64,000 nt of DNA, from contig JABBCA010000033.1 of assembly GCA_018607135.1 (NCBI GenBank), forward strand, positions 2,191 to 66,190, written 5' to 3'. The DNA is from Opitutales bacterium. GTDB lineage: Bacteria > Verrucomicrobiota > Verrucomicrobiia > Opitutales > Coraliomargaritaceae. The notes beneath the pieces were generated by a model, which saw only the letters and a program-made list of their open reading frames with translations, ran no database searches and was not told the origin of the DNA. Within the stretch, counting starts at the first letter, position 1; each line of letters starts with the position of its first letter. Of the stretch, positions 12,029 through 26,304 are shown in pieces. The translations under genes and the position numbers were made by a program.

Positions 12029-15000
12029 ATGAACAATTACCCCTACACCAGATTTCTAGCACTTTTAGTCCTGATCGCTCAAAGTTTTATTTGCACATCG
12101 TTGCAAGCGCAGAGCAATCTCGATGACAAGTCCGACGCTCAACTCGTCGCAGAGTTGAAGAAGCGCATGGAGACCAGCTTAATCGAAGCACGTCCGATCA
12201 TGCTAGAACTTGTCGAACGTTTGAAGGACAAGCCCGAGCGTGAATCCTATCTGTTTTTGATTGGACTATCTTATCAAGACGAATTTGCGGAGAGCTCAAA
12301 TAACCAATCGCTGACGATGGCGGTTGAATACTACAATCGCTACCTTAATGACTTTCCTGCAGGAAACCGCGTGGATTTCGTTCGTTTCAATTTAGCGGGT
12401 GCCTACGCCGATCTGCAAAATTACGATGAGGCGATCAAATTTTACCAAGTGACCTACCGGCGTAGCAATAATGCCGTCTATCGCTCGGAATCGCGCAATC
12501 GTATGGCCAGTTTATATATTCGCTCGGGTCAGGCTTCAGCTGGCGTGCCGCTTTTCCTCGAAGTTTTCAATGCCGCTCTCCTCAATCCGGAGCTGCGTGC
12601 TCAAGCAGCTGCTTGGTTGATTCAAGGTTACTTGGCGAACAATCAATCCGATGCGATCGTGCCGTATCTTCGCTATTTGGCAGGTCGATATGAAGCGATT
12701 TATGACCCTGCATTCAACATTACACTGCTGAAGTCTGGAGACGATCTGTTCGAAAAGAAAGATTATGATCAAGCCATACTCTTATATTCTTTCGTTAAAG
12801 GTCGTGGCGAAATCATACGGTTCTATGAAGTATTGATTGCTGAACTGCAGCAAAAGGTCCGCTATGTGAGCCCTGAGAGCGATCAGTTCATTGTCGTAGA
12901 TGGTCAGCTCAAAGCTGCGGAAGCTCGTCTGGCTGCGGTTAAAGAAATACGCGCCTATAATGTGGACCTTAAATGGCGCATCGCACGCGTTTATAAAGAG
13001 ACCAAGCGAACATGGGAGTCGCTTTGGGCGTTCGTCCACCTTTACGAGGACTTTCCAGAGCACGAGCATGTGGAGGATTTCTTGTTCACCGCTTATAGTG
13101 AAGCGATCGAAATAGGGGATGACACGATGGCCGAAGCACTCGCTGAAGCTTATATGGCGGAGGATTCGTTTATTAAATATGAGGCGCAAGTTATACCCGG
13201 ATTGGCGCGGATGTATGCCGATGATCGGCGCTACGAAAAGTTGATGAAGCTGGTCAATGACTACATGCAAGCACCCAAAAATTTCAGCGTAGCGGCGCAG
13301 TTAGTAAATGTTGTATGTAGCTACTACATGGTAGGCGCGGAATATCAAAATGTTCGCGAATTCGCAGAGGGCACGCGCGATCGCTTCGCGAGTAAAGAGC
13401 CACTCTACGAGGCCTCACGCTACTGGTCTGGGCTCTCCTACCTGCTGCTGGCAGACTATGTCCGAGCATCCAATTCGATGGCTCTGTTTATTGACGCCTA
13501 CTCCCGTCAAAGTGTATTTTATGAAGATACTTATTATCGCTACGCAGTTGCGCTATTTGGTGAGCAAAAGATGGCTGATGCGGAGGCTCAGTTTATTCGC
13601 TTTGTCGATACTTACCCCCAGAGCAATCTTAGAGGCGAGGCCGAGCTCTATGTCGGGGACTTGATGCGGAGTCGCGGGGCACTTGAGGATGCGGCATCTC
13701 GCTATCGTTCCGTTCCGCAGTTTACCGACAACGCCGCCTTCATTGCTAAAGGGGTGTTCGCGCTTGCTGAAGTCCTTGAAGAATTGGGGCAGCCTCAGGA
13801 GGCCGTCGACGAATTGGAAGCGTATGCGAAGAAGTATGGTCAAGAGGCGCAACTTTCCGAAGCCTACTATCGAATTGGAATGATCTTTGATCGACTCGGG
13901 CGACTTGGAGATCGTTTTCAAATTCACTCGATGGCGATCAAAGAGCTGATAGGTAACGTCTCAGGTTATGCCGTCGATGAGTTGATACGTAGTTATGTGA
14001 CTGATCACGGCCGCTACGAAACAAGCTTTGCAGACAGTTTGAAACTTATCGGGCGTTTAGTCGACGACGCCGCGTTTAGAAAAAAATTCCTTACGGATCG
14101 TTCTCACCAATACCAGTTTATGCAGAGTGCTGAAGGTATTTATGTAGATAAAGAATTGGCTTATCTGTTAATCCGCGACAGAGCTTTTCGCAATAAAATC
14201 ATCGAGACGGAGCCCAAGCTGGACCCCGAGACGGGAAAGCCGCTTCCTCTGAATGATGCGGCTGTAACCGAAGCGATGGCGATCAAAGAGCTATCGGAAC
14301 TTGAAGAGTTTTTTGAGAGTAAGGCCGCTAGCATTGCTAGCTACGCGCCCAAGTTGCTCTTTTCAGAACTGTTGTCCACTGGGAGCGACTCAGAAGAACT
14401 CATCCAGCGGATGCGTTCGCACATGGCGCTGGATATGCTTTCTGCAGAAACCGCACCGCCGCGCTATGACTGGGACGAATTAGCGATTGCGCCACCTGCA
14501 GTGATTATTTGGGAGGCAGCTAAGCACCGTGAGACCCGCCCTGAGGCGACTAAAGAACTTTACCAGATCATTCTGGATAAGCATCCATATTCTAATTCCG
14601 TTTACGATGCGCTCTTAGCCCTCGGCGACCTTACTTTTGATACGGCTCAGCAAACAGGTGTTGATGAAGATTGGCGCGAAGCGCTCCGCTATTACGATGT
14701 CATTACCGAACGTTTTGCTCTGCGCTCCAAAACCGCCACTGCGCATCTTCGCAAAGGACGTATCCTCTCCGAACTCTCTCGCGATGAAGAGGCGATTCAA
14801 GTGTTGGGGCAGATCTTGCGTAACCCTGCTTGGAAAGGCTTGGATCACGCTAAGGCGCATCTAGAACTTGGCCGAGCCTACCGTCGTCAAGGAAAGTTGG
14901 ATGAAGCCCACGGCTTTTTTGAGCGCCTAATCGTTGCCTATGGAGGCTATGCAGAGACCGTTTCATGGGCTTATTATTACGATATGCTGACCTTAGAAGC

Positions 15001-15112
15001 GATGAATGAAACTGAAAGCGTTCGCCAGTTGGTCGAGGAATATAAGACTCGCTCAGCTGTGCTTTCCAACACTGAAGCTTATCCCTTGATTGATGAAAAG
15101 TATGCACTCTAG
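12029..15112 (+). CDS. Large secreted TPR protein of the ExbB/ExbD operon
   Basis: A 1027-residue protein with a signal peptide (residues 5-27, cleavage near LQAQS) followed by many tetratricopeptide-like helical repeats, such as YYNRYLNDFPAGNRVDFVRFNLAGAYADLQNYDEAIKFY and FIRFVDTYPQSNLRGEAELYVGDLMRSRGALEDAASRY. The repeats resemble those of YbgF/CpoB and BamD-like periplasmic scaffolds. It is the first gene of a rightward set of seven, running into the next TPR gene with a 20-bp overlap. A scaffold role next to the motor proteins is inferred. No catalytic motif was seen. Confidence 0.8.
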   Translation: MNNYPYTRFLALLVLIAQSFICTSLQAQSNLDDKSDAQLVAELKKRMETSLIEARPIMLELVERLKDKPERESYLFLIGLSYQDEFAESSNNQSLTMAVEYYNRYLNDFPAGNRVDFVRFNLAGAYADLQNYDEAIKFYQVTYRRSNNAVYRSESRNRMASLYIRSGQASAGVPLFLEVFNAALLNPELRAQAAAWLIQGYLANNQSDAIVPYLRYLAGRYEAIYDPAFNITLLKSGDDLFEKKDYDQAILLYSFVKGRGEIIRFYEVLIAELQQKVRYVSPESDQFIVVDGQLKAAEARLAAVKEIRAYNVDLKWRIARVYKETKRTWESLWAFVHLYEDFPEHEHVEDFLFTAYSEAIEIGDDTMAEALAEAYMAEDSFIKYEAQVIPGLARMYADDRRYEKLMKLVNDYMQAPKNFSVAAQLVNVVCSYYMVGAEYQNVREFAEGTRDRFASKEPLYEASRYWSGLSYLLLADYVRASNSMALFIDAYSRQSVFYEDTYYRYAVALFGEQKMADAEAQFIRFVDTYPQSNLRGEAELYVGDLMRSRGALEDAASRYRSVPQFTDNAAFIAKGVFALAEVLEELGQPQEAVDELEAYAKKYGQEAQLSEAYYRIGMIFDRLGRLGDRFQIHSMAIKELIGNVSGYAVDELIRSYVTDHGRYETSFADSLKLIGRLVDDAAFRKKFLTDRSHQYQFMQSAEGIYVDKELAYLLIRDRAFRNKIIETEPKLDPETGKPLPLNDAAVTEAMAIKELSELEEFFESKAASIASYAPKLLFSELLSTGSDSEELIQRMRSHMALDMLSAETAPPRYDWDELAIAPPAVIIWEAAKHRETRPEATKELYQIILDKHPYSNSVYDALLALGDLTFDTAQQTGVDEDWREALRYYDVITERFALRSKTATAHLRKGRILSELSRDEEAIQVLGQILRNPAWKGLDHAKAHLELGRAYRRQGKLDEAHGFFERLIVAYGGYAETVSWAYYYDMLTLEAMNETESVRQLVEEYKTRSAVLSNTEAYPLIDEKYAL

Positions 15113-16226
15113 ACCTTACAATCTACCACGTTTTTCGGCCGCGCTGATTTGTTGCGTCTGGTCGCTTTGTGCGACAGCCACCTCCGCGCAGGACTTGAAT
15201 TTGCCTCGATTGCCACAGGTGGCGACACCCTCTGATACCTTCACGCTGTCAAAGCCCATCGCGATTACTGATACGAATAAAAACACTCAATTATTAGTCG
15301 GGATGGAAAACGGCCAACTTCGACTATCGTTTCCGAACATGCCAGGTGCGGAAGCGATTGTTCCGATTGATGGCGACGAGTTTATCATTTCTGCGCAAGT
15401 GCCTGCAGGATACAACCGTCTGCTGAATGAATACCAGCTAGGTAATCTAGGCACCTTCATTACAGGCCTTCAAGAAACGGCTGAGCCCTTGGCTGGCTTC
15501 CTCATGATACCGCCCGAGAACACCAACTTTCATAGTATATTCATTCGTTACTATGAAGCAATCGTGACTGCCGGTCGGCTCGAAGACGCCGCCAAATTAA
15601 CGAACCGTATGCCTTGGGGGCAGCTACCTCAAGAATACATCGCACTCTCAGAGCGTTTAGTCTATCGCAGCATCGAAGATCGAGAGTTTCAGCAGACGCA
15701 AAAACTGCTCTCTCTTCTGTTTCAGAGCTTAACCGAAGAGTCTTTTGCTGGAATCGCTTTTAGGGTCGCAGACACCCTCCGGGCGGAAGGTAATCACGAA
15801 CTCGCTGCAATGGTCTACGGCTCGTTAGCTCTGTCTGAAGATTCTATTCTACGCCAAAAAAGCTTGCTCTGGGCCGGCTATAGTCGCGCGGTTTCAAAAG
15901 ATGCTGATGGAGCTAGAAATATTCTTAATCAAGTCCAAGTGCTAGAGCGCAGTGATGAAAACTTCCTTACCTATTGCCTTGCACTAGGGCGCCTCGGATA
16001 TGCTGAAGATAATATTAGCGATGGCCTTCGTCATCTTTCTCGTGCCATGGTGCTCACCGCAGTGGATGCTACTTTTAAGCCTGAGCTCTATTACCTGCTA
16101 AGTGTCGGTTATTGGGAATCTGGTAACCGAATTGCAGCTGACCGTTTGGCTAAAGAATTTTCGATCTTTTATCCTGAAAACCCCTGGCTTAAAAAATACC
16201 AAGCCGACTACGCAAACACTCTATAA
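15093..16226 (+). CDS. Second secreted TPR-like protein of the motor operon
   Basis: About 377 residues. ATG 15093 ([11 protein letters not shown]) is preferred to the TTG three bases earlier; ATG 15102 is also possible. A signal peptide ends near ATATSAQD, then comes a beta-rich region (to about 130) and TPR-like helices (about 150-375, e.g. [38 protein letters not shown]). The gene starts inside the end of the previous gene, so translation is probably coupled. Function is unknown beyond the association with ExbB/ExbD. Confidence 0.75.
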
Positions 16227-16248
16227 CATTAGACCATACCAATACACT

Positions 16249-17004
16249 ATGAAAAATAAAATCAGTCTCCTCATGCTATGTGTGGCATCGGCTTTTTTCC
16301 TCGGCGCGACGAGTTCTCTTCATGCGCAAGACGCTAGCGGCGAAGAAATGGCTGAGCTGACGCCGGCAGCCGCAGAAAAAACGCTCTTCGATATGATTAA
16401 GGCAGGGGGGTGGGCGATGTTCCCGCTCGGTGTGCTCTCAGTCGCGACAGTTGGGTTTGTAGTCTTTAACTTTTTGGCCATTCGCCGCAGTAGCTTCGTT
16501 GATGACGCAGTCATTGAAGAGCTGGATGCTGCCGTCAGCCAGATGGATATCGATAAGGCACACACGATCTGCCTCGAAAATCCCAGCCCTGTGACGAACA
16601 CGTTTAATTATGGGCTCGACCAAGTGCGCCATAAGGATTTTTCCACTGAGGCAGTCGAGAAGGCCTTCGACAACGCCTCGACTAAAGAGCTCTCTGGAGC
16701 ATTTATTATCGTAAGCTATCTCTCGATCATTGCCGCCATAGCGCCGATGGTTGGACTGTTGGGCACCGTTTCTGGTATGGTCAAGGCTTTCAATTCGATC
16801 GCAGCCCAAGGTATGGGTAAACCAGAGCTACTCGCCGATAATATTTCGGAAGCATTGATCACTACCGCTACGGGTATGGCTATTGCGATACCCGCCATGT
16901 TCTTCTTTTTCTTTTTCCGCAACCGCTACGGCAAAATCGTTGCTGAGTGTAATCTCGTGCTCGGCCGTCTCTATACGGATCTTCTTCGTGCAGCTGGCAA
17001 GTAA
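16249..17004 (+). CDS. exbB: MotA/TolQ/ExbB proton channel protein
   Basis: 251 residues from ATG 16249; an in-frame upstream ATG at 16102 lies inside the preceding gene and is rejected. An N-terminal signal-like segment (residues 5-24) is followed by three membrane segments: [44 protein letters not shown] and [22 protein letters not shown]. The second and third are the signature helices of ExbB/TolQ stators. With ExbD it forms a proton-driven motor in the inner membrane. An extra N-terminal signal-like region is common in ExbB proteins of this phylum. The symbol is by family; a TolQ-like role is equally possible. Confidence 0.9.
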
Positions 17005-17010
17005 TCAGAT

Positions 17011-17421
17011 ATGAAACTCTGGAACAACAGCGAAGAGGATGGTGAGGTCGATCTGACTCCGATGATCGACATCGTCTTCCTGCTCATTGTCTTCTTTATG
17101 ACGGTGGCCAATATGATCACAGCCGAAAAGAAGCCGATCAGTGTGCCTGTTGCGTTGAACTCTACCATTCCCGAAGACTATGGTGAGCGCACAACTGTGA
17201 CGGTTCAGAGAGATGGCTCTCTCTATGCGGGCGTTTATGATGTGACCCTCGATGAACTTGGCGACATACTTAAAAACGCGCATGACCAAGACTCGAACGT
17301 TAAGGTTTATCTGCGTGCCGATAGCGCTGCAGAGCATCAATATGTGAATGACGTGATGAAAGCCTGCGCTGCAGCTGGCTTGAGCAATGTCATCTTCGCG
17401 GCCTTTCAAAGCGATAAATAA
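17011..17421 (+). CDS. exbD: ExbD/TolR biopolymer transport protein (first copy)
   Basis: 136 residues, 6 bp after exbB. A short cytoplasmic N-terminus is followed by [20 protein letters not shown], the single membrane helix with the essential Asp in the D-x-V/I-F-L motif, and a periplasmic TolR-type domain. It is the proton-translocating partner of ExbB. Confidence 0.92.
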
Positions 17422-17441
17422 CAGCAGGAGCGACTGACGAT

Positions 17442-17876
17442 ATGCAAGCTGAAGAAATTTTAACTGGTAAGATTAAAGCGGACCTGACCCCCATGATCGA
17501 CGTGGTCTTCTTGTTGCTCATCTTTTTCATGGTCACCACTCAACTGATTAAAGAAGAGGCAGATCTCGGCATCCAGTTGCCGACTAACACCAAGGCCGTA
17601 GCCAGTGATGAGCTACCTAACAGACATACCATCGACATCCTGCCTGACGGTTCGGTTCTGTTTAACGGCAGTCCCATTGCCAGTTCGATGGAGCGAATTA
17701 CCCTGCACGGACTTATCGCGACTCTTAAGCGCGTCAAAGGCACCTCTGATCGCATGGCGCAGAAGGCGGTCGTCGTCATTATTGCCGATCCTATCTCTCC
17801 TCACTACAAGTCCATCGAAGTGCTCGACGCCTGCGCTGCTGCCGACATCAAATTCGTTTCCTTTGGCGATTTCTAG
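17442..17876 (+). CDS. exbD: ExbD/TolR biopolymer transport protein (second copy)
   Basis: 144 residues. A good ribosome site (aggag) lies upstream of ATG 17442. The helix [21 protein letters not shown] carries the essential Asp. The periplasmic part differs clearly from the first ExbD, so the two are old paralogues and could form a hetero-assembly in one motor. Confidence 0.92.
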
Positions 17877-17886
17877 TTGTTGAACA

Positions 17887-18987
17887 GTGAACATCAGTAA
17901 CGCATACGCCCGCAACAAGGCACTTTTTCTCGTCGTCGCAGTAAGCCTCGGTTTGCATGTGTTGGGGCTTGTTGTCTTTGGCACATTTAAGATCGTCGAA
18001 AGCATAGTTCGCGAAGAGCAGACCTTCGAAGCGCCCCCCATCGCAGAGGTGCCACAAGAGCAACCCGAATACACCGTCAACCTTGAGCAGCGCAACCAAT
18101 CGAGCGCTCCACCGCGACCCAATCCCATAGTGGTGGAATCGCCCGAAGTGACTATTCCCGCGCTCGATATCGACGTAAATATCGCGAATTCCTCCAGCTA
18201 TGGTCGCGGCACTGGCGGCTTTGGCTCAAGTGCGGGCATTACAGAAATGCGTGAAATGGTCGTTGAGCTGACTAAATTCGGTTACAGCGGGTTCGTCGAA
18301 GGCACATTAGAAGGCACACTCTTTGACTTGAAGTTCAACAATAAGGGAAAACAACTAGTCGAGTTTGACAGTAGCAAAGAGCTCGAGATGTTGGTTGGCA
18401 GATACGCTGGGGGAATTGTAAAGGATTTTACAACGGGCTCTTGGAATGTGGGTGCTCATGAACGAAAATACAAAGCAGCTGAGCAAAAGCTTTACGGATC
18501 TTTTTTCATTATTCCAAAAAGTTCGGCTGCAGATGCGCCCAAAGCTTTCAACGCAGAAAAAGAGATGGATGCTAAGGCGATTATGGCGATATACAGAGGC
18601 TCCTATACTCCGACAGAATCAGGGCGATTTCGTTTTGCAGGGCAGGGGGATGATGTTCTTATCGTGCGAGCCAATAACCGCATCATACTCGATGGCAGCT
18701 GGAGCAATGGTTATTCAGAATGGGATCAAAACAAAGCCGAGAAAGGACAAGCTGGCTTATTCGGTCTCAACAAAGAACTCATTTATGGTGACTGGCTCTC
18801 GTTGACGGCGGGCCAATCCATTAGCCTTCAGATTCTCATCGCCGAAGTGCCTGGTGGAGCATTTGGTGCTTACCTGTTAATACAGAAAGAGGACGAGGAG
18901 TTAAAAGTGTTTTCAACAGCCGCCATTAGCAGTAAGGAGAAACGGCAGATTAAAGAGTTACATTTTGACGCCAGTAAATTTCTCTAA
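17887..18987 (+). CDS. TonB-like anchor with PA14-like extracytoplasmic domain
   Basis: 366 residues; GTG start matches the ATG start of the paralogue at 19033 (MNISNAYARN in both). One membrane helix (residues 12-33) is followed by a Pro/Glu linker as in TonB (EAPPIAEVPQEQPEYTVNLEQ). There is no TonB C-terminal domain. Instead, residues about 240-345 resemble a PA14/fibro-slime domain (GRFRFAGQGDDVLIVRANNRIILDGSW, GDWLSLTAGQSISLQILIAEVPGG). The N-terminal 113 residues are 91% identical to the next gene. Inferred role: a motor-driven or motor-anchored periplasmic protein that binds a glycan or protein partner. Confidence 0.72.
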   Translation: MNISNAYARNKALFLVVAVSLGLHVLGLVVFGTFKIVESIVREEQTFEAPPIAEVPQEQPEYTVNLEQRNQSSAPPRPNPIVVESPEVTIPALDIDVNIANSSSYGRGTGGFGSSAGITEMREMVVELTKFGYSGFVEGTLEGTLFDLKFNNKGKQLVEFDSSKELEMLVGRYAGGIVKDFTTGSWNVGAHERKYKAAEQKLYGSFFIIPKSSAADAPKAFNAEKEMDAKAIMAIYRGSYTPTESGRFRFAGQGDDVLIVRANNRIILDGSWSNGYSEWDQNKAEKGQAGLFGLNKELIYGDWLSLTAGQSISLQILIAEVPGGAFGAYLLIQKEDEELKVFSTAAISSKEKRQIKELHFDASKFL

Positions 18988-19032
18988 GCTAAAGCGCATC
19001 TGGGCAGAATTTCAAACTACAGTTTTACACTT

Positions 19033-20091
19033 ATGAATATCAGTAACGCATACGCACGTAACAGAGCACTCTTTATTGTCGTCGCCGTCAGCTTAGGCTT
19101 ACATATTTTGGGGCTCGTTATTTTTGGGACGTTTAAGATTGTCGAAAGTATCGTTCGCGAGGAGCAGGCATTTGAGGCTCCTCCCATTGTTGAAGTTCCG
19201 CAAGAACAGCCAGAATACACAGTCAACCTCGAACAGCGCAATCAATCCAGTGCTCCTCCGCGTCCGAACCCGATCGTTGTAGACTCACCAGATGTCACCA
19301 TCCCTGCGCTCAACATCGATGTGACTATCGCCAACTCCTCTAGCTACGGTCGTGGCACTGGCGGCTTTGGCACTGGCACGATCGATATGCGTGAAATGGT
19401 GATCGCCGACCTTGAATTTTTTGGGGCAAAAGCGACTGGAAGCAACGTCGTCATGATTCTCGACGCGACTCACTCAGGCGCTGGGATTTTCAATGAGACG
19501 CGTCAGGAGCTGTTCAAAACGATTGAACAAATGAAGGGCACGGATGCCCAATACGCCGTAATTTACTTTGGGGGTAGAGTCGCGGGGCATGTCGTGAACA
19601 AGAATATCGACGTCGATCCCACGAAAGAAGACTTCTGGTATCCACGAGGTGTTTCTAATAGGAAATGGTTAACGGCTGATAGCGATGATACTGGAAAAGT
19701 AATCGAGCAACTTAAAGGTGTAGATCCAAGATCTAAGGAATCCAAAGTGGCAACTGCTAAAGATCTCAAGAAACCAGAGCAGTTCTTCGTCTTAGGCACC
19801 CAATTCTGGGGCGCTGTGAATGACGCCTTTCGCATGAAGCCTGCGCCCAATACTATTTTCTTTATGGTAGAACCAAGCGTGGCTTTTCCTAGTTTGGAAA
19901 CCGCAAAAAAATCTTACGCATGGTTCGAGAAGCACGGACGTAGAAAACCTAGTGAGACCTCGGTTCAATTCATCATCGGAAAAATGCCAGCGGGTGATAA
20001 ACTGGCTGCATTGCGTTACATGGTTAATGAGTTAAATGGCGGCAAACTAAGTGATTCAGAAATAGATAAAAGAATCACTCCGACACGATAG
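19033..20091 (+). CDS. TonB-like anchor with VWA-like domain
   Basis: 352 residues. Residues 1-113 copy the previous protein except for ten mostly conservative changes. After a Gly/Ser hinge, residues about 136-345 begin VVMILDATHSG, where D144, T146 and S148 occupy the DxSxS metal-site positions of von Willebrand factor A domains, followed by alternating strands and helices. The site is non-canonical (Thr for the first Ser), so metal binding is uncertain. It ends the motor operon. VWA domains mediate protein-protein contacts, so it may present a different head on the same motor-binding stalk. Confidence 0.7.
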   Translation: MNISNAYARNRALFIVVAVSLGLHILGLVIFGTFKIVESIVREEQAFEAPPIVEVPQEQPEYTVNLEQRNQSSAPPRPNPIVVDSPDVTIPALNIDVTIANSSSYGRGTGGFGTGTIDMREMVIADLEFFGAKATGSNVVMILDATHSGAGIFNETRQELFKTIEQMKGTDAQYAVIYFGGRVAGHVVNKNIDVDPTKEDFWYPRGVSNRKWLTADSDDTGKVIEQLKGVDPRSKESKVATAKDLKKPEQFFVLGTQFWGAVNDAFRMKPAPNTIFFMVEPSVAFPSLETAKKSYAWFEKHGRRKPSETSVQFIIGKMPAGDKLAALRYMVNELNGGKLSDSEIDKRITPTR

Positions 20092-20376: not shown

Positions 20377-21762
20377 TCACTGCTTGTGTGTCTTAGCCAG
20401 ATCGTCGCACACATCCTCGAACCAATTATGTAGTTCTGTTTCCAATCGGCTCACTATTTGTGGTTCTTGCTTGGCTAAATTGACCGATTCGAGAGGATCG
20501 AGTTTCAGGTTGTAGAGTTCAACTGGAGGCGGAGCAGGGAATTGAACATCTGGATAAGGACCCGTTCGAATTCCGTTTGTTTCGAAATACTCAGGCTCAT
20601 ACATCGAGACATCAAGCCACTTTATATCGGGCACTTCAAACGCTTCAGGAACGAATGGCCGAACCAATTTCCAATCACCGTCGCGTATCGCGGCGTTGTA
20701 TTCTATATTAGGTGTATAGCGATTCCATTGCCAGCAGCGCATTGGGTTGTGCGGATTGGAATTCCCATGGAGGACCTCAGTTTGATCAATACCATCAATT
20801 TTCAAATGCTTTGGCGTTTCGATGCCTACCATGCTCAGAATGGTTGGTAGCCAATCAGTCATATGAAAAAAGTGGCTTTGAATGTTATTTTTAGAATCCA
20901 ATCCAGCTGGCCACCTTACGATTGCTGGAACTCGTATGCCGCCTTCGTAAGTAGAGCCCTTTGAGCCATGTAAATTGCAATTGAACCTGTCGAGGCATTC
21001 GCTACCGGTGCCACCAAACTGAGGGCCATTGTCACTCGAAAATATGATGAGTGTATTCTCCTTCAATCCAAGCTCTTTAATTTTATCCAACAGTCGCCCC
21101 ACGTTTTGATCCAAGCGATGAATCATCGCGTAGAGCACCTTGACTGCGTCTGTAAGGTCCTCTCGGTCTTCAAATAATTTCAAGTCCTCTTCAGGAGCTT
21201 GGAGGGGAGTGTGTGGCGCGTTATAGGTTAGATGCAAGTAGAATGGTTGCTTACGATGTCTCTGCGTAAACTCGATGGCTTCATCGGTCCAATAATCGGT
21301 TAGATAGCGCCCGTCACTTCTCAAGACTCGATCTCCTGATTCGAGTCGCCAGTTGAAGTAGTCGTGCATGCCACCGCGAAAGCAGACTGCTTCATCAAAT
21401 CCCCGACATTCGGGTTTATAGCGTTTGTCAAACGCTCCAAGGTGCCATTTACCGATCAAGCCAGTTGTGTAGCCTTTGCTCTGTAGGATATTAGCTATCG
21501 TTGTTTCATTCAGGTCCAAGCGCTCGAGGCCCCACCATTCTAAGGTGTCAATGGAGCCAGTTCGGTGGGGGTAGCGCCCAGTAAGCAGCGATGCGCGTGA
21601 TGGATTACAAACAGGTGAGCTCGTGTAGTGTTGGGACAAGCAGGTGCTTTCCTCGATGAATTGATCTAAGTTTGGTGTTAAATTCAGACCATTGTTGAAG
21701 CAACTGAAGTCTCCATACCCTAGGTCGTCGACTAGAATATGTATTATGTTTGGAAGTGTCAT
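20377..21762 (-). CDS. Formylglycine sulfatase without signal peptide
   Basis: 461 residues, alkaline-phosphatase fold. Metal residues appear in the N-terminal ILVDDLGYGD. The sulfatase signature VCNPSRASLLTGRYPHRTG places the modified residue at Cys52 (C-x-P-x-R type, converted to formylglycine). GKWHLG, PHTPL and SSDNGPQFGG are the other metal and sulfate-site blocks. The start at residue 1 leads directly into the fold, so the enzyme is predicted to be cytoplasmic, unlike the other sulfatases here. It lies 122 bp downstream of, and on the same strand as, the TonB-dependent receptor and is probably cotranscribed with it. Substrate not predictable; an imported sulfated mono- or oligosaccharide fits. 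Confidence 0.92.
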   Translation of the reverse strand: MTLPNIIHILVDDLGYGDFSCFNNGLNLTPNLDQFIEESTCLSQHYTSSPVCNPSRASLLTGRYPHRTGSIDTLEWWGLERLDLNETTIANILQSKGYTTGLIGKWHLGAFDKRYKPECRGFDEAVCFRGGMHDYFNWRLESGDRVLRSDGRYLTDYWTDEAIEFTQRHRKQPFYLHLTYNAPHTPLQAPEEDLKLFEDREDLTDAVKVLYAMIHRLDQNVGRLLDKIKELGLKENTLIIFSSDNGPQFGGTGSECLDRFNCNLHGSKGSTYEGGIRVPAIVRWPAGLDSKNNIQSHFFHMTDWLPTILSMVGIETPKHLKIDGIDQTEVLHGNSNPHNPMRCWQWNRYTPNIEYNAAIRDGDWKLVRPFVPEAFEVPDIKWLDVSMYEPEYFETNGIRTGPYPDVQFPAPPPVELYNLKLDPLESVNLAKQEPQIVSRLETELHNWFEDVCDDLAKTHKQ

Positions 21763-21884
21763 ATTACGTTTTGAGAATGCTTTAGCTTACGCGAAACGAC
21801 CGCACCAAGAAGTCTTAGCAAGACGTATGATTGCTGCCATTTCTTGCGTAGGCCCGCGTAAGTGATAAGCAAATTTTACTTAAT

Positions 21885-24281
21885 TTAAAAACTGATTTTG
21901 TTCGTTAGGAAGAAGGTCTGCGGTTGCGAGCGTGTTGCAAAGACTAGGTTGATTGGGTTTATATATTCGGTATCGAAGAGGTTGTTCGCATTTAATGAAA
22001 TTCTCCAATCGAACTTTTCAAATCTCTTAAAGTAGCTGATCACTGCGTTAATTTGAACGTAACCATCTACTGAATACTCTTGGTCTGGTATGTTGTCGCC
22101 GTCTGAGTCTAGATAGCCTGCGACGGCTTCACTTCGATAGTTTGCGCCCGCGCCAATGCTAAGACCTTTGAGTGTGCTATTTTGGAACGCGTAGTGAACA
22201 AAGATGTTTGCATTATGGGATGCGTTACCCGTAACGGTTTGACCCACTGGCAGACCAAGCGTTTCATCTCCGCCTTCGCGTATGACGTCGATATATCCGT
22301 AGCCGCCTCGAATGGTTAAACCTTTGAAGGGCTTGGCGACAAAGTCGATTCCAAAACCTTCAGATAATTGATCAGTGAGTGCCGCTCCACCGGGCGTGAG
22401 CCCAACTGTTGCCTGTGCGAGGGGTGTTGGCACCACTTCAAATGTATTTTTGTTTTTGACCTGGAAGACGTAAATGCTGCCCGTCAGCTTACTGTCATAG
22501 AGGTCATACTTAAATCCGAGATCGACTCCACTGGTTTCTCTGGGTTCTAAATACTCGTTGGTTTCTGCATCGCGACGTAGATTTAAATTGGCCGATTCCC
22601 CGTAATTGGCGAAAAAGCCGATGCTTTCGGTTATTTGGTAGACGAATCCTAAGGCTGAGCTTGTAAGGTTTTCTGAGACCTTCTCTGCTGGAAATCTAAG
22701 AGAAGGAATGATACTGTTGATTGGATCGAGATCGACCTTGTTCACATCATGTCGGACGCCACCCTGCACAAAAAGTCGATTGTTGAGAAACTCACCAGAG
22801 AATCCAATGTAGCCACCGACAACGTCAAATGCAAAGGCTTGATCACGGAAGGCTCGGTAACCTCCGCTGGGGTCTGAGTAAATGCCGAATTGAGGCGCGT
22901 CGCCAGCAACGATACTACTGTAATCGATGGTCATGAAATTCGGTGCAGTGGCTGCATTTCTGAAATCTCGAAAGTCCTCTATGTCGACAGATGAGCGATC
23001 ATAGCGTGCTCCAGTTAAGAGCTTAATGACACTGTCCTCTAACTCGAATGTGTAACTAGTGTCGAGCCGTGTGTAAAAACTCTTACCTTCACGCTCTTGG
23101 CCGTTGAAGAAACCGCGCACGCTGCCGTCATCTAGAAGTTCATCGCCTCGAACAAAGGTCATTAAATCTCTTCCCGTCCAGCTCTGATAGACTCTGAGTT
23201 GGCTTTGGAGTTTTTCATTCAGTGCTAAGTTTTGAACTGTCAACTCAATGGATGTCCAATGGTTGTTTACGAAACTGTCGGGACCCGCATGTGATTGGGC
23301 AGACTCGAATGGAACCTGAACCTGCATGTCATCGCCGTTGCCTAAAATCCCATCGCCACCAGCAACTGTAACGGTTTCATTTTCAATGAAGCGGTTGTTG
23401 TAGCGTAGGATGCTACGTGAGGGCGTGTCATTTTCTTCACCTGTTTCAACCTCAAGGCGTATTTTTGTGGTATCGGATAATTGATAAAGAATGTGTGCAT
23501 CAATCGCACGCTTGCTGCCTTCCTCATAGAGTCGCCAGCTTTCGTTTTCTTCATAAACGCCATTTACCCGAACTGAAAAGGGCCCTCTGTGACTGTTCGT
23601 ATCAAATGTGCCTCTGTAGAAGTCGTTGGAGCCAATCTTAAATTCTACATCAGTAAAATTGATCGTATTTGGTATTTTGGTGTTTAAATTAACCAATCCA
23701 CCTGGGTCTGGTCGTCCATATTGCAGCGCTGCTGGACCTTGTAGCACTTCGACCGTGCTGATATTGTAGCGATCGGGTGAGTAATCTAAGCTTAGAAAGT
23801 TACGAGTTGGGCGATTACTTTGCAGGCCTCGAACCGTATATGCTTGAGCGTTTCCACTCGCGTCGAAGCTAGTCTTCACGTTGGTGGCATACTGTAGTGC
23901 GTCATTGATGTCATTGGCGCCAATGTCTTCCATGAAGTCTGGCGTGAGCACCGAAATTTGAACCGGGGTCTTTCCAATCTCCTCGGCAAATAAACTTGCT
24001 GATGTGGTGTGTGTCGATTGATAACCAGTGGGCGCTACGACGGTGAAAGGGTCGAGCACGAAAATCTCATCATCAGTTCCGGCATTCTCGGTTTCGCCTG
24101 CTGGTAAGATAAGTTCAGGGAGTGTTGAATTTGTGGCTTCCGTATTTTTGATTGCAGATACTTCTTCTTTGGGAGCCTCTTTTTTGGGTTCGAGTGTGTC
24201 TTCAGCAGCGGGGACTTGTAGCGAGCCGAAAGTTAAGGTGACCATCAATATGAGGGGATAGAACGGCTTAGAATTGGGCAT
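21885..24281 (-). CDS. TonB-dependent outer-membrane receptor
   Basis: 798 residues with a signal peptide, a charged linker (to about 70), a TonB-box-like region (DEIFVLDPFTVVA), a plug domain (about 85-210: TPVQISVLTPDFMEDIGANDINDALQYATNVK and the VEVLQGPAALQYGRPDPGGLVNLNTK block), and a 22-strand barrel ending in the terminal Phe signature FFLTNKISF. The plug resembles siderophore-type receptors, which in this phylum are also used for glycans. Context (sulfatase downstream, glycan operator upstream) suggests import of sulfated oligosaccharides powered by an ExbB/ExbD system. A conserved palindrome (24316-24329) lies 35 bp upstream. Confidence 0.93.
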   Translation of the reverse strand: MPNSKPFYPLILMVTLTFGSLQVPAAEDTLEPKKEAPKEEVSAIKNTEATNSTLPELILPAGETENAGTDDEIFVLDPFTVVAPTGYQSTHTTSASLFAEEIGKTPVQISVLTPDFMEDIGANDINDALQYATNVKTSFDASGNAQAYTVRGLQSNRPTRNFLSLDYSPDRYNISTVEVLQGPAALQYGRPDPGGLVNLNTKIPNTINFTDVEFKIGSNDFYRGTFDTNSHRGPFSVRVNGVYEENESWRLYEEGSKRAIDAHILYQLSDTTKIRLEVETGEENDTPSRSILRYNNRFIENETVTVAGGDGILGNGDDMQVQVPFESAQSHAGPDSFVNNHWTSIELTVQNLALNEKLQSQLRVYQSWTGRDLMTFVRGDELLDDGSVRGFFNGQEREGKSFYTRLDTSYTFELEDSVIKLLTGARYDRSSVDIEDFRDFRNAATAPNFMTIDYSSIVAGDAPQFGIYSDPSGGYRAFRDQAFAFDVVGGYIGFSGEFLNNRLFVQGGVRHDVNKVDLDPINSIIPSLRFPAEKVSENLTSSALGFVYQITESIGFFANYGESANLNLRRDAETNEYLEPRETSGVDLGFKYDLYDSKLTGSIYVFQVKNKNTFEVVPTPLAQATVGLTPGGAALTDQLSEGFGIDFVAKPFKGLTIRGGYGYIDVIREGGDETLGLPVGQTVTGNASHNANIFVHYAFQNSTLKGLSIGAGANYRSEAVAGYLDSDGDNIPDQEYSVDGYVQINAVISYFKRFEKFDWRISLNANNLFDTEYINPINLVFATRSQPQTFFLTNKISF

Positions 24282-24315
24282 TGTAGTTGGGGCAGGGGGG
24301 GGCTCTTCAATGGAT

Positions 24316-24329
24316 TGGTAATAGTAACA
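24316..24329. promoter_or_regulatory. Palindromic glycan-regulon site 1 (TonB receptor)
   Basis: TGGTAATAGTAACA, 35 bp upstream of the TonB-dependent receptor start. Matches TGWTAVTABTAWCA except for one base. Confidence 0.65.
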
Positions 24330-24449
24330 TCGTTATTTATGTGTGTTTGTGTCAATTTTAATCAATGGATTGTTTTTTTAATCATGGAACTTCGGGCAAT
24401 AACGAAGCACTATAGTTTAATCCACGCTTGACTCGCTTCCTAAACCAAA

Positions 24450-24463
24450 TGTTAATAGTATCA
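24450..24463. promoter_or_regulatory. Palindromic glycan-regulon site 2 (sulfatase)
   Basis: TGTTAATAGTATCA, ending 2 bp before the ATG at 24466. Identical to site 7 at 50122. At this position a bound protein would cover the ribosome site region of the DNA. Confidence 0.7.
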
Positions 24464-24465
24464 TT

Positions 24466-26304
24466 ATGCGAATTTCTACCTCTTTTTGCCCTTTAATTTT
24501 GTGTCTGCTCAGCGTTTGTTGCTCCACGCTCTTAGCCAGTCAGCAGCCTAATATCATCTTTATTCTTACCGATGATCAAGGTTACGGAGACTTGGAACGC
24601 CACGGGCATCCCTATTTGAAGACTCCGCATACCAATCGTTTGCACGATGAGAGTGTGCGTTTTGATAATTTTTATGTGAGTCCCTCATGTTCACCGACAC
24701 GAACCGCTCTAATGACTGGTATGCACGAGTTCCAAAGTGGAGTGACGCATACACTTCCGCCTCGTGAAAAGCCGTCTGCAGAGATGGTTTTCCTGCCAGA
24801 GCTTTTGAAGGAAGTGGGCTATCATACTGGATTTGTTGGTAAGTGGCACCTAGGGGGCTCTAAAGGCTACCGACCTGAGGACCGTGGTTTTGACTGGACT
24901 TCCACCAATCCTCGTGGGCCTAGGAGACACTTTGATCCAGAAATTATTCGTAACGGGGTGCGCACCCAGCGTGAAGGCTATCGTGAGGATATTTTCTTCG
25001 ATGAGGCGATGACTTTTATTGAGGAAAGTGCAGACCGTCCGTTTTTCTGTTATTTAGCTACCTACTCACCGCATACGCCGTTAGCGGCTCCTGAGTCTTT
25101 CATTAAGCCATTTCGTGATGCAGGTTTAAATGATACCCACGCGACGTATTTAGCAATGGTTGAAAATGTAGATTACAATGTGGGGCGGTTACTCGATTTT
25201 CTTGAACGCACTGGACGTGATGAAAATACGATTCTGATTTTCATGAATGACAACGGCGTCACCGAGGGGCTCGACGTTTATAATGCAAACATGCGTGGCA
25301 GCAAATGCACCGCTTGGGAGGGCGGCTCTCGGGCAATGTCTTTTTGGCGATGGCCTAACCAGTGGCAACCGCACGAAGTGAACCAATTAACTGCTCATTT
25401 AGATGTATTGCCTACATTGTGCGAACTTGCTGGTGTATCGATTCCAGGCGACTTGAATGACAACTTGGAGGGGTATTCGCTGGTCTCCTTATTGGAAGGA
25501 GCTGAAACGACACCATGGCAAGATGGGCGTATGCTTTATCATCATGTCGCGCGTTGGCCTAGTGGCCAAGCTGAAGCGCACAAATATGCAATGGTCTCGG
25601 TTCATAAGGGTGATTTTCTTTTGGTTCGCAGTGAATCCTGCGGCACTGAAGCCTGTGAAGAGTTTCAAAGCCAATGCACCACCATGCGTGCCGTGCGTAA
25701 TGGTTTAACGCGAACTACATATGCTTATGGCACTGCGCAAACACATTGGGGGGTGACTCCCCGTGGGCAGTGGGCGCTCTATAATGTCAAGCAAGACCCC
25801 GGTTGTGAAAATGACTTATCAAGTTCATATCCAGAGAAGGTTTCTGCGATGGCAGCCGGTTACGATCATTGGTGGGATTCGACCTTTCCAACTTTGATTG
25901 CTCGTGGTGGAGATGAGGGGGATCCGAACGTGAGTCGTAATGCATCTCGTCAAGCGCAGAAATGGAAGGGGCCGACAACGGATCGTGACTCAAATACTAG
26001 TAAAGGTGCGGATACAAAGACCTCAGCTGCTACGAGTTCAATGTTCCAGCGCATGGATACGGATAATAATGGGGCAGTGGATATGGATGAATATGTGGGT
26101 TTATTTGAACCGTTCTTTGAAAAGAAAGATCTCGATAAAAATGGCACTCTGGATGAAGCGGAATTTCAGTCTCAAGCATTTAAACATGCAGACGCCAATG
26201 ATGATCAATCGCTTACGAAGTCCGAGTATCAGCTGTTTTTTAAGAATCAATTTCGACAAAGAGATGCGAATCACGATGGGCAATTAGAGCCTTCTGAAAT
26301 GTAA
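24466..26304 (+). CDS. Secreted sulfatase with C-terminal EF-hand domain
   Basis: 612 residues: signal peptide (to about residue 25), sulfatase catalytic domain (28-500) with FILTDDQGYGD, SPSCSPTRTALMTG (Cys75 predicted formylglycine), GKWHLGG, SPHTPL and MNDNG. After a linker come four EF-hand-type loops (about 525-612: DTDNNGAVDMDE, DLDKNGTLDEAE, DANDDQSLTKSE, DANHDGQLEPSE). The EF-hand tail is an unusual addition to a sulfatase and implies calcium binding outside the cell. It is the first of three neighbouring genes that all carry EF-hands, separated by about 18 bp each. One glycan-regulon palindrome sits right before the start. Confidence 0.93.
   Translation: MRISTSFCPLILCLLSVCCSTLLASQQPNIIFILTDDQGYGDLERHGHPYLKTPHTNRLHDESVRFDNFYVSPSCSPTRTALMTGMHEFQSGVTHTLPPREKPSAEMVFLPELLKEVGYHTGFVGKWHLGGSKGYRPEDRGFDWTSTNPRGPRRHFDPEIIRNGVRTQREGYREDIFFDEAMTFIEESADRPFFCYLATYSPHTPLAAPESFIKPFRDAGLNDTHATYLAMVENVDYNVGRLLDFLERTGRDENTILIFMNDNGVTEGLDVYNANMRGSKCTAWEGGSRAMSFWRWPNQWQPHEVNQLTAHLDVLPTLCELAGVSIPGDLNDNLEGYSLVSLLEGAETTPWQDGRMLYHHVARWPSGQAEAHKYAMVSVHKGDFLLVRSESCGTEACEEFQSQCTTMRAVRNGLTRTTYAYGTAQTHWGVTPRGQWALYNVKQDPGCENDLSSSYPEKVSAMAAGYDHWWDSTFPTLIARGGDEGDPNVSRNASRQAQKWKGPTTDRDSNTSKGADTKTSAATSSMFQRMDTDNNGAVDMDEYVGLFEPFFEKKDLDKNGTLDEAEFQSQAFKHADANDDQSLTKSEYQLFFKNQFRQRDANHDGQLEPSEM

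What the first reader, a model, noticed from the sequence alone, without database searches (positions are those of the whole stretch)
17887..20091. Twin TonB-like stalks with swapped heads (PA14-like versus VWA-like)
Residues 1-113 of the two proteins are 103/113 identical, yet the codons differ at many synonymous positions, so the N-terminus is under strong protein-level constraint and is not a recent copy. After a Gly-rich hinge the two proteins are unrelated. Neither has a TonB C-terminal domain. With ExbB and two ExbD in the same operon this suggests one motor driving two different extracytoplasmic heads.
Basis: partly seen in the sequence, partly recalled or inferred. Interest (0 to 1): 0.65.

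Follow-up and report, generated by a model that had tools for sequence, protein, structure and literature searches.

The report
Twin motor arms with interchangeable heads
Two neighbouring bacterial genes make envelope proteins that share one motor-gripping stalk but carry different heads (a sugar-binding-type PA14 fold and a VWA fold), apparently so that one proton-driven motor can pull on two different things; the VWA form was described in 2025, but the PA14 form and the pairing do not appear in the literature I could search.

Summary
The two genes share a 113-residue stalk (103/113 with GTG read as Met) with 54 synonymous codon differences, then unrelated heads. They end an operon TPR-TPR-ExbB-ExbD-ExbD-PA14-VWA (12029-20091) in an Opitutales genome (Verrucomicrobiota). 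The stalk has the TonB-type S-x-x-x-H in its membrane helix; all 67 motor-linked relatives keep the His, and 25 of 78 unlinked ones lack it. Stalk type tracks motor type (four types, >=66% identical within, <=42% between) whatever the head. The window's VWA head is nearest to heads on a different motor type (AU p=0.001), while its ExbB is not: a head/motor swap. In other PA14/VWA pairs, stalks are more alike within an operon than between same-head genes of different genomes. One pair (L307) has a stalk-only block essentially identical in protein and 93-98% in DNA with divergent ends on both sides: gene conversion. So the stalks look homogenised, not only constrained. VWA transducers on this operon are already published (Williams-Jones 2025, PMC12204202). 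PA14-headed ones, mixed-head clusters on one motor and stalk homogenisation seem unreported: a new variant of a known kind. Docking is inferred from sequence; the cargo is unknown, glycan capture likeliest.

The parts
12029..15112 (+). TPRa, 1027-aa TPR protein, first gene of the operon
   Evidence: Pfam TPR_6 2e-16; conserved first gene of the operon in relatives
15090..16226 (+). TPRb, 378-aa second operon protein, overlaps TPRa
   Evidence: no Pfam hit; conserved position
16249..17004 (+). ExbB/TolQ-like proton channel (likely ATG start at 16249)
   Evidence: PF01618 5.4e-27; GLLGTVSGM and TT motifs invariant
17011..17421 (+). ExbD/TolR-like 1 (PMIDIVFLL with the membrane Asp)
   Evidence: PF02472 1.3e-25
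17442..17876 (+). ExbD/TolR-like 2 (PMIDVVFLL with the membrane Asp)
   Evidence: PF02472 1e-20
17887..18987 (+). PA14-headed TonB/TolA-like force transducer
17887..18225 (+). shared stalk, copy 1: short cytosolic start, TM helix with S20-x-x-x-H24, Pro-rich linker, Gly hinge
18226..18984 (+). short shared MREMV..FG joint, then PA14-type head
   Evidence: 6/16 relatives hit PF07691; Foldseek top hits PA14 adhesins and GH3/GH31 PA14 (low-confidence model)
19033..20091 (+). VWA-headed TonB/TolA-like force transducer
19033..19371 (+). shared stalk, copy 2; AF2 helix 6-39 confident (pLDDT above 90 in residues 11-30)
19372..20088 (+). MREMV..FG joint, then VWA-type head, MIDAS DxSxS changed to DATHS
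   Evidence: relatives hit VWA/VWA_3; PDB profile hit ITIH1 VWA 5e-11; Foldseek ANTXR2, Ku, integrin I

Best explanation
The operon encodes a proton-driven ExbB/ExbD-type motor with two TonB/TolA-like transducers. Each has a membrane helix with the S-x-x-x-H docking motif, a Pro-rich periplasmic linker and a Gly hinge. The linkers end in different heads: a PA14 fold (a lectin-type fold in adhesins and glycosidases) and a VWA fold (protein binding). Both can dock on the same ExbB site, so one motor can apply force to two different partners near the outer membrane, alternately or together. Because both must fit the same motor, their stalks are kept alike by gene conversion plus purifying selection, while heads diverge and can be exchanged at the hinge. 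SHOWN by sequence: operon, shared stalk, motif conservation, stalk-motor type matching, head/motor swap, stalk-only conversion in relatives. INFERRED: physical docking, force transfer, functional pairing. GUESS: the target is polysaccharide capture or uptake (PA14 fold, sulfatase neighbourhoods, an alpha-amylase gene next to this genome's third motor).
For: Operon TPR-TPR-ExbB-ExbD-ExbD-stalk/head conserved across the order and in PA14-headed form in other families and classes (L296, L297, L298, L308). His kept in 67/67 motor-linked transducers, missing in 25/78 unlinked. Stalk type equals motor type: three motors in this genome each have a matching stalk type. Head swap: AU p=0.001 against the window VWA head grouping with heads of its own motor type; AU p=0.0096 against its ExbB grouping with L037/L215. 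Within-operon stalk identity 91/80/91% versus 70-72% for same-head stalks of other genomes; same-head stalk clades rejected, p=3e-4 and 6e-19. Conversion: L307 stalk block 93-98% DNA, most of the flanking sequence 30-62%; G162 twins fourfold 8/51 stalk versus 37/73 head, p=6e-5. PMC12204202 reports AF3 models of such VWA proteins docking on the motor through the same His.
Against: No experiment and no complex prediction of my own (the tool folds single chains). For the window pair itself synonymous sites are saturated, so homogenisation there is inferred from relatives. Over all VWA operons heads correlate with motors about as well as stalks do, so swaps are rare. His-less stalks come from about four lineages, so the 67/0 versus 53/25 contrast is not that many independent events. 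Some stalk genes lie far from any motor. The PA14 model is poor (mean pLDDT 45, three sequences).
Confidence: 0.7

Rival explanations
1. Plain tandem duplication with one head replaced; the stalks are alike only because of common descent and strong purifying selection, with no homogenisation and no functional pairing.
For: dN/dS in the window stalk is very low (dN about 0.05, dS saturated); VWA+VWA twins (L038) look like a simple duplication.
Against: PA14 and VWA heads each have orthologues in L037 and L215, yet stalks pair by operon, not by head (AU p=3e-4 and 6e-19); L307 and G162 show stalk-limited DNA identity.
Confidence: 0.17
2. Stalk and head proteins are only inner-membrane-anchored binding or scaffold proteins, not force transducers; the ExbB/ExbD linkage reflects assembly.
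For: No mechanical assay; several lineages keep heads and linker without the His (f2, f16, f18, f29).
Against: Invariant His in all motor-linked members, one stalk type per motor type, published AF3 docking for VWA relatives (PMC12204202).
Confidence: 0.1
3. The two proteins form an obligate heteromer: two nearly identical stalks dock together on one motor and hold a composite PA14-VWA head.
For: PA14+VWA adjacency recurs on three motor types (window, L037/L215, L307) and in a PA14-VWA-PA14 triplet (L305); identical stalks would suit side-by-side docking.
Against: Single PA14 (L071, L296-L298, L308) and single VWA operons are common, so neither needs the other in general.
Confidence: 0.2
4. 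The VWA protein is of the second published class, whose helix inserts into the TolQ pore in place of TolR/ExbD.
For: It is a membrane-tethered VWA protein beside a TolQ homologue.
Against: Two ExbD genes with the Asp are present, the stalk helix has S-x-x-x-H and no conserved Asp; the published class lacks ExbD genes and the motif.
Confidence: 0.02

Closest known systems
vWA force transducers of Williams-Jones et al. 2025 (PMC12204202, Mol Biol Evol 42:msaf138)
   Same: TM helix with SHLS-type His, disordered Pro-rich linker, vWA C-terminal domain, downstream of TPR, TolQ-like and two TolR-like genes, explicitly in Verrucomicrobia
   Different: That paper does not mention PA14 in its main text and, in the section read, describes no mixed-head pairs and no stalk homogenisation; the window VWA head has a changed MIDAS (DATHS) and sits beside a PA14 twin
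TonB-ExbB-ExbD
   Same: PMF motor genes, S-x-x-x-H in the N-terminal helix, Pro-rich spacer
   Different: No TonB C-terminal domain; two ExbD genes; two TPR genes; two transducers
TolA-TolQ-TolR (Tol-Pal)
   Same: Motor closer to TolQ/TolR than to ExbB/ExbD in NCBIfam scores
   Different: No TolA C-terminal domain found; no TolB/Pal in the operon; scores far below the tolQ/tolR cut-offs
PA14 carbohydrate-binding domains (Epa1, flocculin Flo5, MpAFP adhesin, GH3 inserts)
   Same: Predicted fold of the head
   Different: Here on a motor-linked inner-membrane stalk facing the periplasm; sugar-binding residues not shown
Fibrobacter ExbB/ExbD operon FSU_2400-2403 and PA14/fibro-slime proteins (PMC6851124)
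   Same: ExbB, two ExbD and a TonB-family gene together; these, some TPR and PA14 proteins rise on cellulose
   Different: Other phylum; PA14 proteins there are not reported as stalk-borne; homology not tested here

Membership tests
vWA force transducers (Williams-Jones 2025) | Single N-terminal TM helix with the conserved motor-binding His (SHLS) | tested here: met
   S20 and H24 in both window proteins; the further L and S of SHLS are not at the expected spacing; His in 67/67 motor-linked members
vWA force transducers (Williams-Jones 2025) | Pro-rich/disordered linker of about 100 residues | tested here: met
   AF2: no secondary structure for residues 40-124, low pLDDT from about 41 to 120
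vWA force transducers (Williams-Jones 2025) | vWA C-terminal fold | tested here: met
   VWA protein only: relatives hit VWA/VWA_3, profile hits ITIH1 VWA 5e-11, Foldseek VWA domains; window head alone gives no Pfam VWA hit and MIDAS is changed
vWA force transducers (Williams-Jones 2025) | vWA fold in the PA14-headed twin (17887-18987) | tested here: not met
   Head is PA14 type; it works like the family but is not a vWA member
vWA force transducers (Williams-Jones 2025) | Synteny with TPR, TolQ-like and two TolR-like genes | tested here: met
vWA force transducers (Williams-Jones 2025) | Physical docking on the motor | not testable with these tools
TonB | TonB C-terminal domain | tested here: not met
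   No TonB family hit in Pfam or NCBIfam
PA14 domain (PF07691) | Match to the family | tested here: met
   Relatives above the cut-off (L307 24.7, L070 35.2 versus 24 bits), 6/16 at E<=0.01; window sequence alone does not reach it
PA14 domain (PF07691) | Carbohydrate binding | not testable with these tools
   needs a binding assay
TPH-vWA proteins (second class of Williams-Jones 2025) | No ExbD/TolR gene, membrane Asp in own helix | tested here: not met
   Two ExbD genes present; no conserved Asp in the stalk helix

The most novel reading that the evidence does not exclude
A widespread Verrucomicrobiota system in which one ExbB/ExbD-type motor drives several transducers with different heads, with the motor-docking stalk kept common by gene conversion and the heads acting as exchangeable tools (PA14 for glycans, VWA for proteins).
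Probability: 0.5. Interest if true: 0.75.

Novelty: new variant of a known kind. Interest (0 to 1): 0.6.

Why it matters
Tol and Ton motors are usually pictured with one dedicated transducer and one C-terminal fold. A motor with interchangeable heads would show how such motors acquire new jobs, would separate the motor-docking part from the working part by natural experiment, and gives a testable entry to how Verrucomicrobiota move large polysaccharides. The head/motor swap inside one genus (window genome versus G432) is a ready-made test pair.

Tried and rejected
Pfam on the window heads alone was negative and was resolved with relatives. I first thought loss of the His went with loss of the motor; rejected, because the 11 His-lacking genomes of the order (f2, f16, f18) still have ExbB genes of this kind elsewhere; what holds is that they are not linked to the stalk gene. 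A global test (heads less correlated with motors than stalks) failed: rank correlation 0.74 versus 0.71 among VWA operons; only specific cases are incongruent. Stalk topology alone could not exclude the window stalk grouping with L037/L215 (support 46/0); identity (83-84% versus about 40%) separates them. In-place replacement of motor and stalk between G432 and the window could not be shown: flanks do not match. A link to Akkermansia mucin-utilisation (mul) genes was suspected from memory; the papers held did not confirm ExbB/ExbD there. Promoter and terminator scans were at chance level.

Full report
OBSERVATION. The two ORFs are real and adjacent. The first 113 residues are 103 identical if the GTG start is read as Met (102 literally). 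54 of 113 codons differ synonymously, DNA identity is 78%, dN about 0.05, dS saturated. Similarity continues past the Gly hinge for a short joint (MREMV...FG, after a 3-residue length difference) and then stops. The heads are unrelated.

WHAT IT IS. The two genes close an operon: TPRa, TPRb, ExbB, ExbD, ExbD, PA14-headed, VWA-headed. Both proteins start with a membrane helix carrying S-x-x-x-H (S20, H24), as in TonB/TolA (TonB residues from general knowledge), then a Pro-rich linker with no predicted structure and a head. Neither window head reaches Pfam alone. Among relatives, 6 of 16 PA14-type members hit PA14, and L307 and L070 pass the curated cut-off. Up to 12 of 24 VWA-type members hit VWA families, and their profile finds the ITIH1 VWA domain at 5e-11. 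The AF2 model of the VWA protein (mean pLDDT 66.6) matches ANTXR2, Ku and integrin I domains. The PA14 model is poor (pLDDT 45), but its best Foldseek hits are almost all PA14 adhesins and glycosidases.

RELATIVES. In the order, 51 of 177 genomes have a stalk protein; all 51 also have ExbD. The operon recurs with one or two transducers. Named carriers of the motor include Coraliomargarita sp. SDUM461004, Cerasicoccus species and many Puniceicoccaceae/Opitutales MAGs. The PA14-headed kind is spread through the phylum: 100 of 288 genomes match a PA14-type profile that includes the stalk (some matches are VWA twins through the stalk). Sampled cases include motor-linked ones with S-x-x-x-H in other classes (L296, L307, L308) and other families (L297, L298). 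PA14+VWA pairs occur on one motor in the window, L037, L215 (same genus as the window; the G432 locus) and L307. L305 has PA14-VWA-PA14.

STALK FOLLOWS MOTOR. This genome has three motors of this kind (C29, C43, C4). Four motor types were compared: ExbB is 70-86% identical within a type and 39-53% between; stalks are 66-91% within and 24-42% between, whatever the head. The His is present in all 67 motor-linked transducers; 25 of 78 unlinked ones lack it (p=3e-8). The losses fall in about four lineages, and at least two of the 25 are gene-boundary errors (L078, L304 4849-6531), so the number of independent events is small.

HEADS CAN BE SWAPPED. The window ExbB and stalk are closest to L038 (G049; 86% and 83%). 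The window VWA head is closest to L037/L215, whose motor and stalk are of another type. Forcing the window head into the clade of its own motor type is rejected (AU p=0.001), as is forcing its ExbB with L037/L215 (p=0.0096). G432, in the window's genus, carries the same head pair on the other motor type and lacks the window motor type. Over all VWA operons, however, heads and stalks both correlate with motors (0.74 and 0.71), so a swap is exceptional.

STALKS ARE HOMOGENISED. Twin stalks within an operon are 91% (window), 80% (G090/L037) and 91% (L215) identical. Same-head stalks between G090 and L215 are only 70-72%, although their heads are orthologous (42-52%). Trees that group stalks by head are rejected (p=3e-4 and 6e-19). 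L307 gives the plainest case: a block of about 120 residues covering helix, linker and hinge is essentially identical in protein and 93-98% in DNA between VWA and PA14 genes, while most of the sequence on both sides is 30-62% in DNA. G162 VWA twins show the same on one side (fourfold 8/51 versus 37/73, p=6e-5), with the caution that the second copy is truncated. In the window pair synonymous sites are saturated, so any conversion there is old.

MECHANISM. Most likely both stalks dock on the same site of one proton-driven motor and pass force to two kinds of partner. Sequence facts are shown; docking and force are inferred, with support from published AF3 models of VWA relatives (PMC12204202). 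Cargo is a guess. Pointers to polysaccharides: the PA14 fold, sulfatase genes near this operon and near L037, L038 and L324, a GH95 gene in the window, and a 1583-aa alpha-amylase-type protein with a lipobox-like start in this genome's third motor cluster next to its PA14 transducer, with a similar-sized gene at that place in G049. In Fibrobacter an ExbB/ExbD/TonB cluster and some TPR and PA14 proteins rise on cellulose (PMC6851124).

KNOWN OR NEW. The VWA transducer on a TPR-TolQ-TolR-TolR operon in Verrucomicrobia is published (Williams-Jones 2025). PA14 does not occur in that paper's main text, and searches found no paper joining PA14 to such motors as transducers (open-licence PMC only). 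Hence: new variant of a known kind.

Noticed in passing
L185:4214-8965 (G000:C4) and L186:1889-6715: A 1583-aa alpha-amylase/CBM48-type protein with lipobox-like start lies between the divergent PA14 transducer and the third TPR-TPR-ExbB-ExbD-ExbD operon; G049 has a 1608-aa gene at the same place.
   Followed up: partly
L307:5229-8241 (G186:C33): VWA and PA14 transducers with N-terminal cytosolic SAM domains (PF00536 2e-18 and 4e-16), a domain better known from eukaryotes, ahead of a stalk block essentially identical in protein between them.
   Followed up: partly
L305:6358-10709 (G362:C116): PA14-VWA-PA14 triplet of stalk proteins with S-x-x-x-H and no motor gene in the 17-kb stretch.
   Followed up: no
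L096, L101, L105 (f16) and L177, L178: TPRa-TPRb-stalk operon without ExbB/ExbD; the ExbB-ExbD-ExbD genes sit elsewhere (seen in G016, G036), and the stalk helix has lost S and H.
   Followed up: partly
L289-L291, L301-L303, L306 (f29, genus g81): PA14-headed proteins, often in tandem, whose helix has no His and which are not next to motor genes.
   Followed up: no
L062:7953-8801: Second VWA twin of G162 is truncated (282 versus 459 aa) although its stalk is 96% identical in DNA to its neighbour; perhaps a decaying copy.
   Followed up: no
L325:13666-14796 (G112:C46): In the window's genus G112 keeps an orphan PA14 gene with an L037-type stalk but no L037-type motor was found.
   Followed up: partly
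L214 (PBCW01000002.1): Record titled Rhodospirillaceae carries a Puniceicoccaceae-type operon; probably a mislabelled or mixed MAG.
   Followed up: no
window 20377-26304: Two sulfatase-like genes and a TonB-dependent receptor next to the operon, suggesting a sulfated-glycan locus.
   Followed up: no
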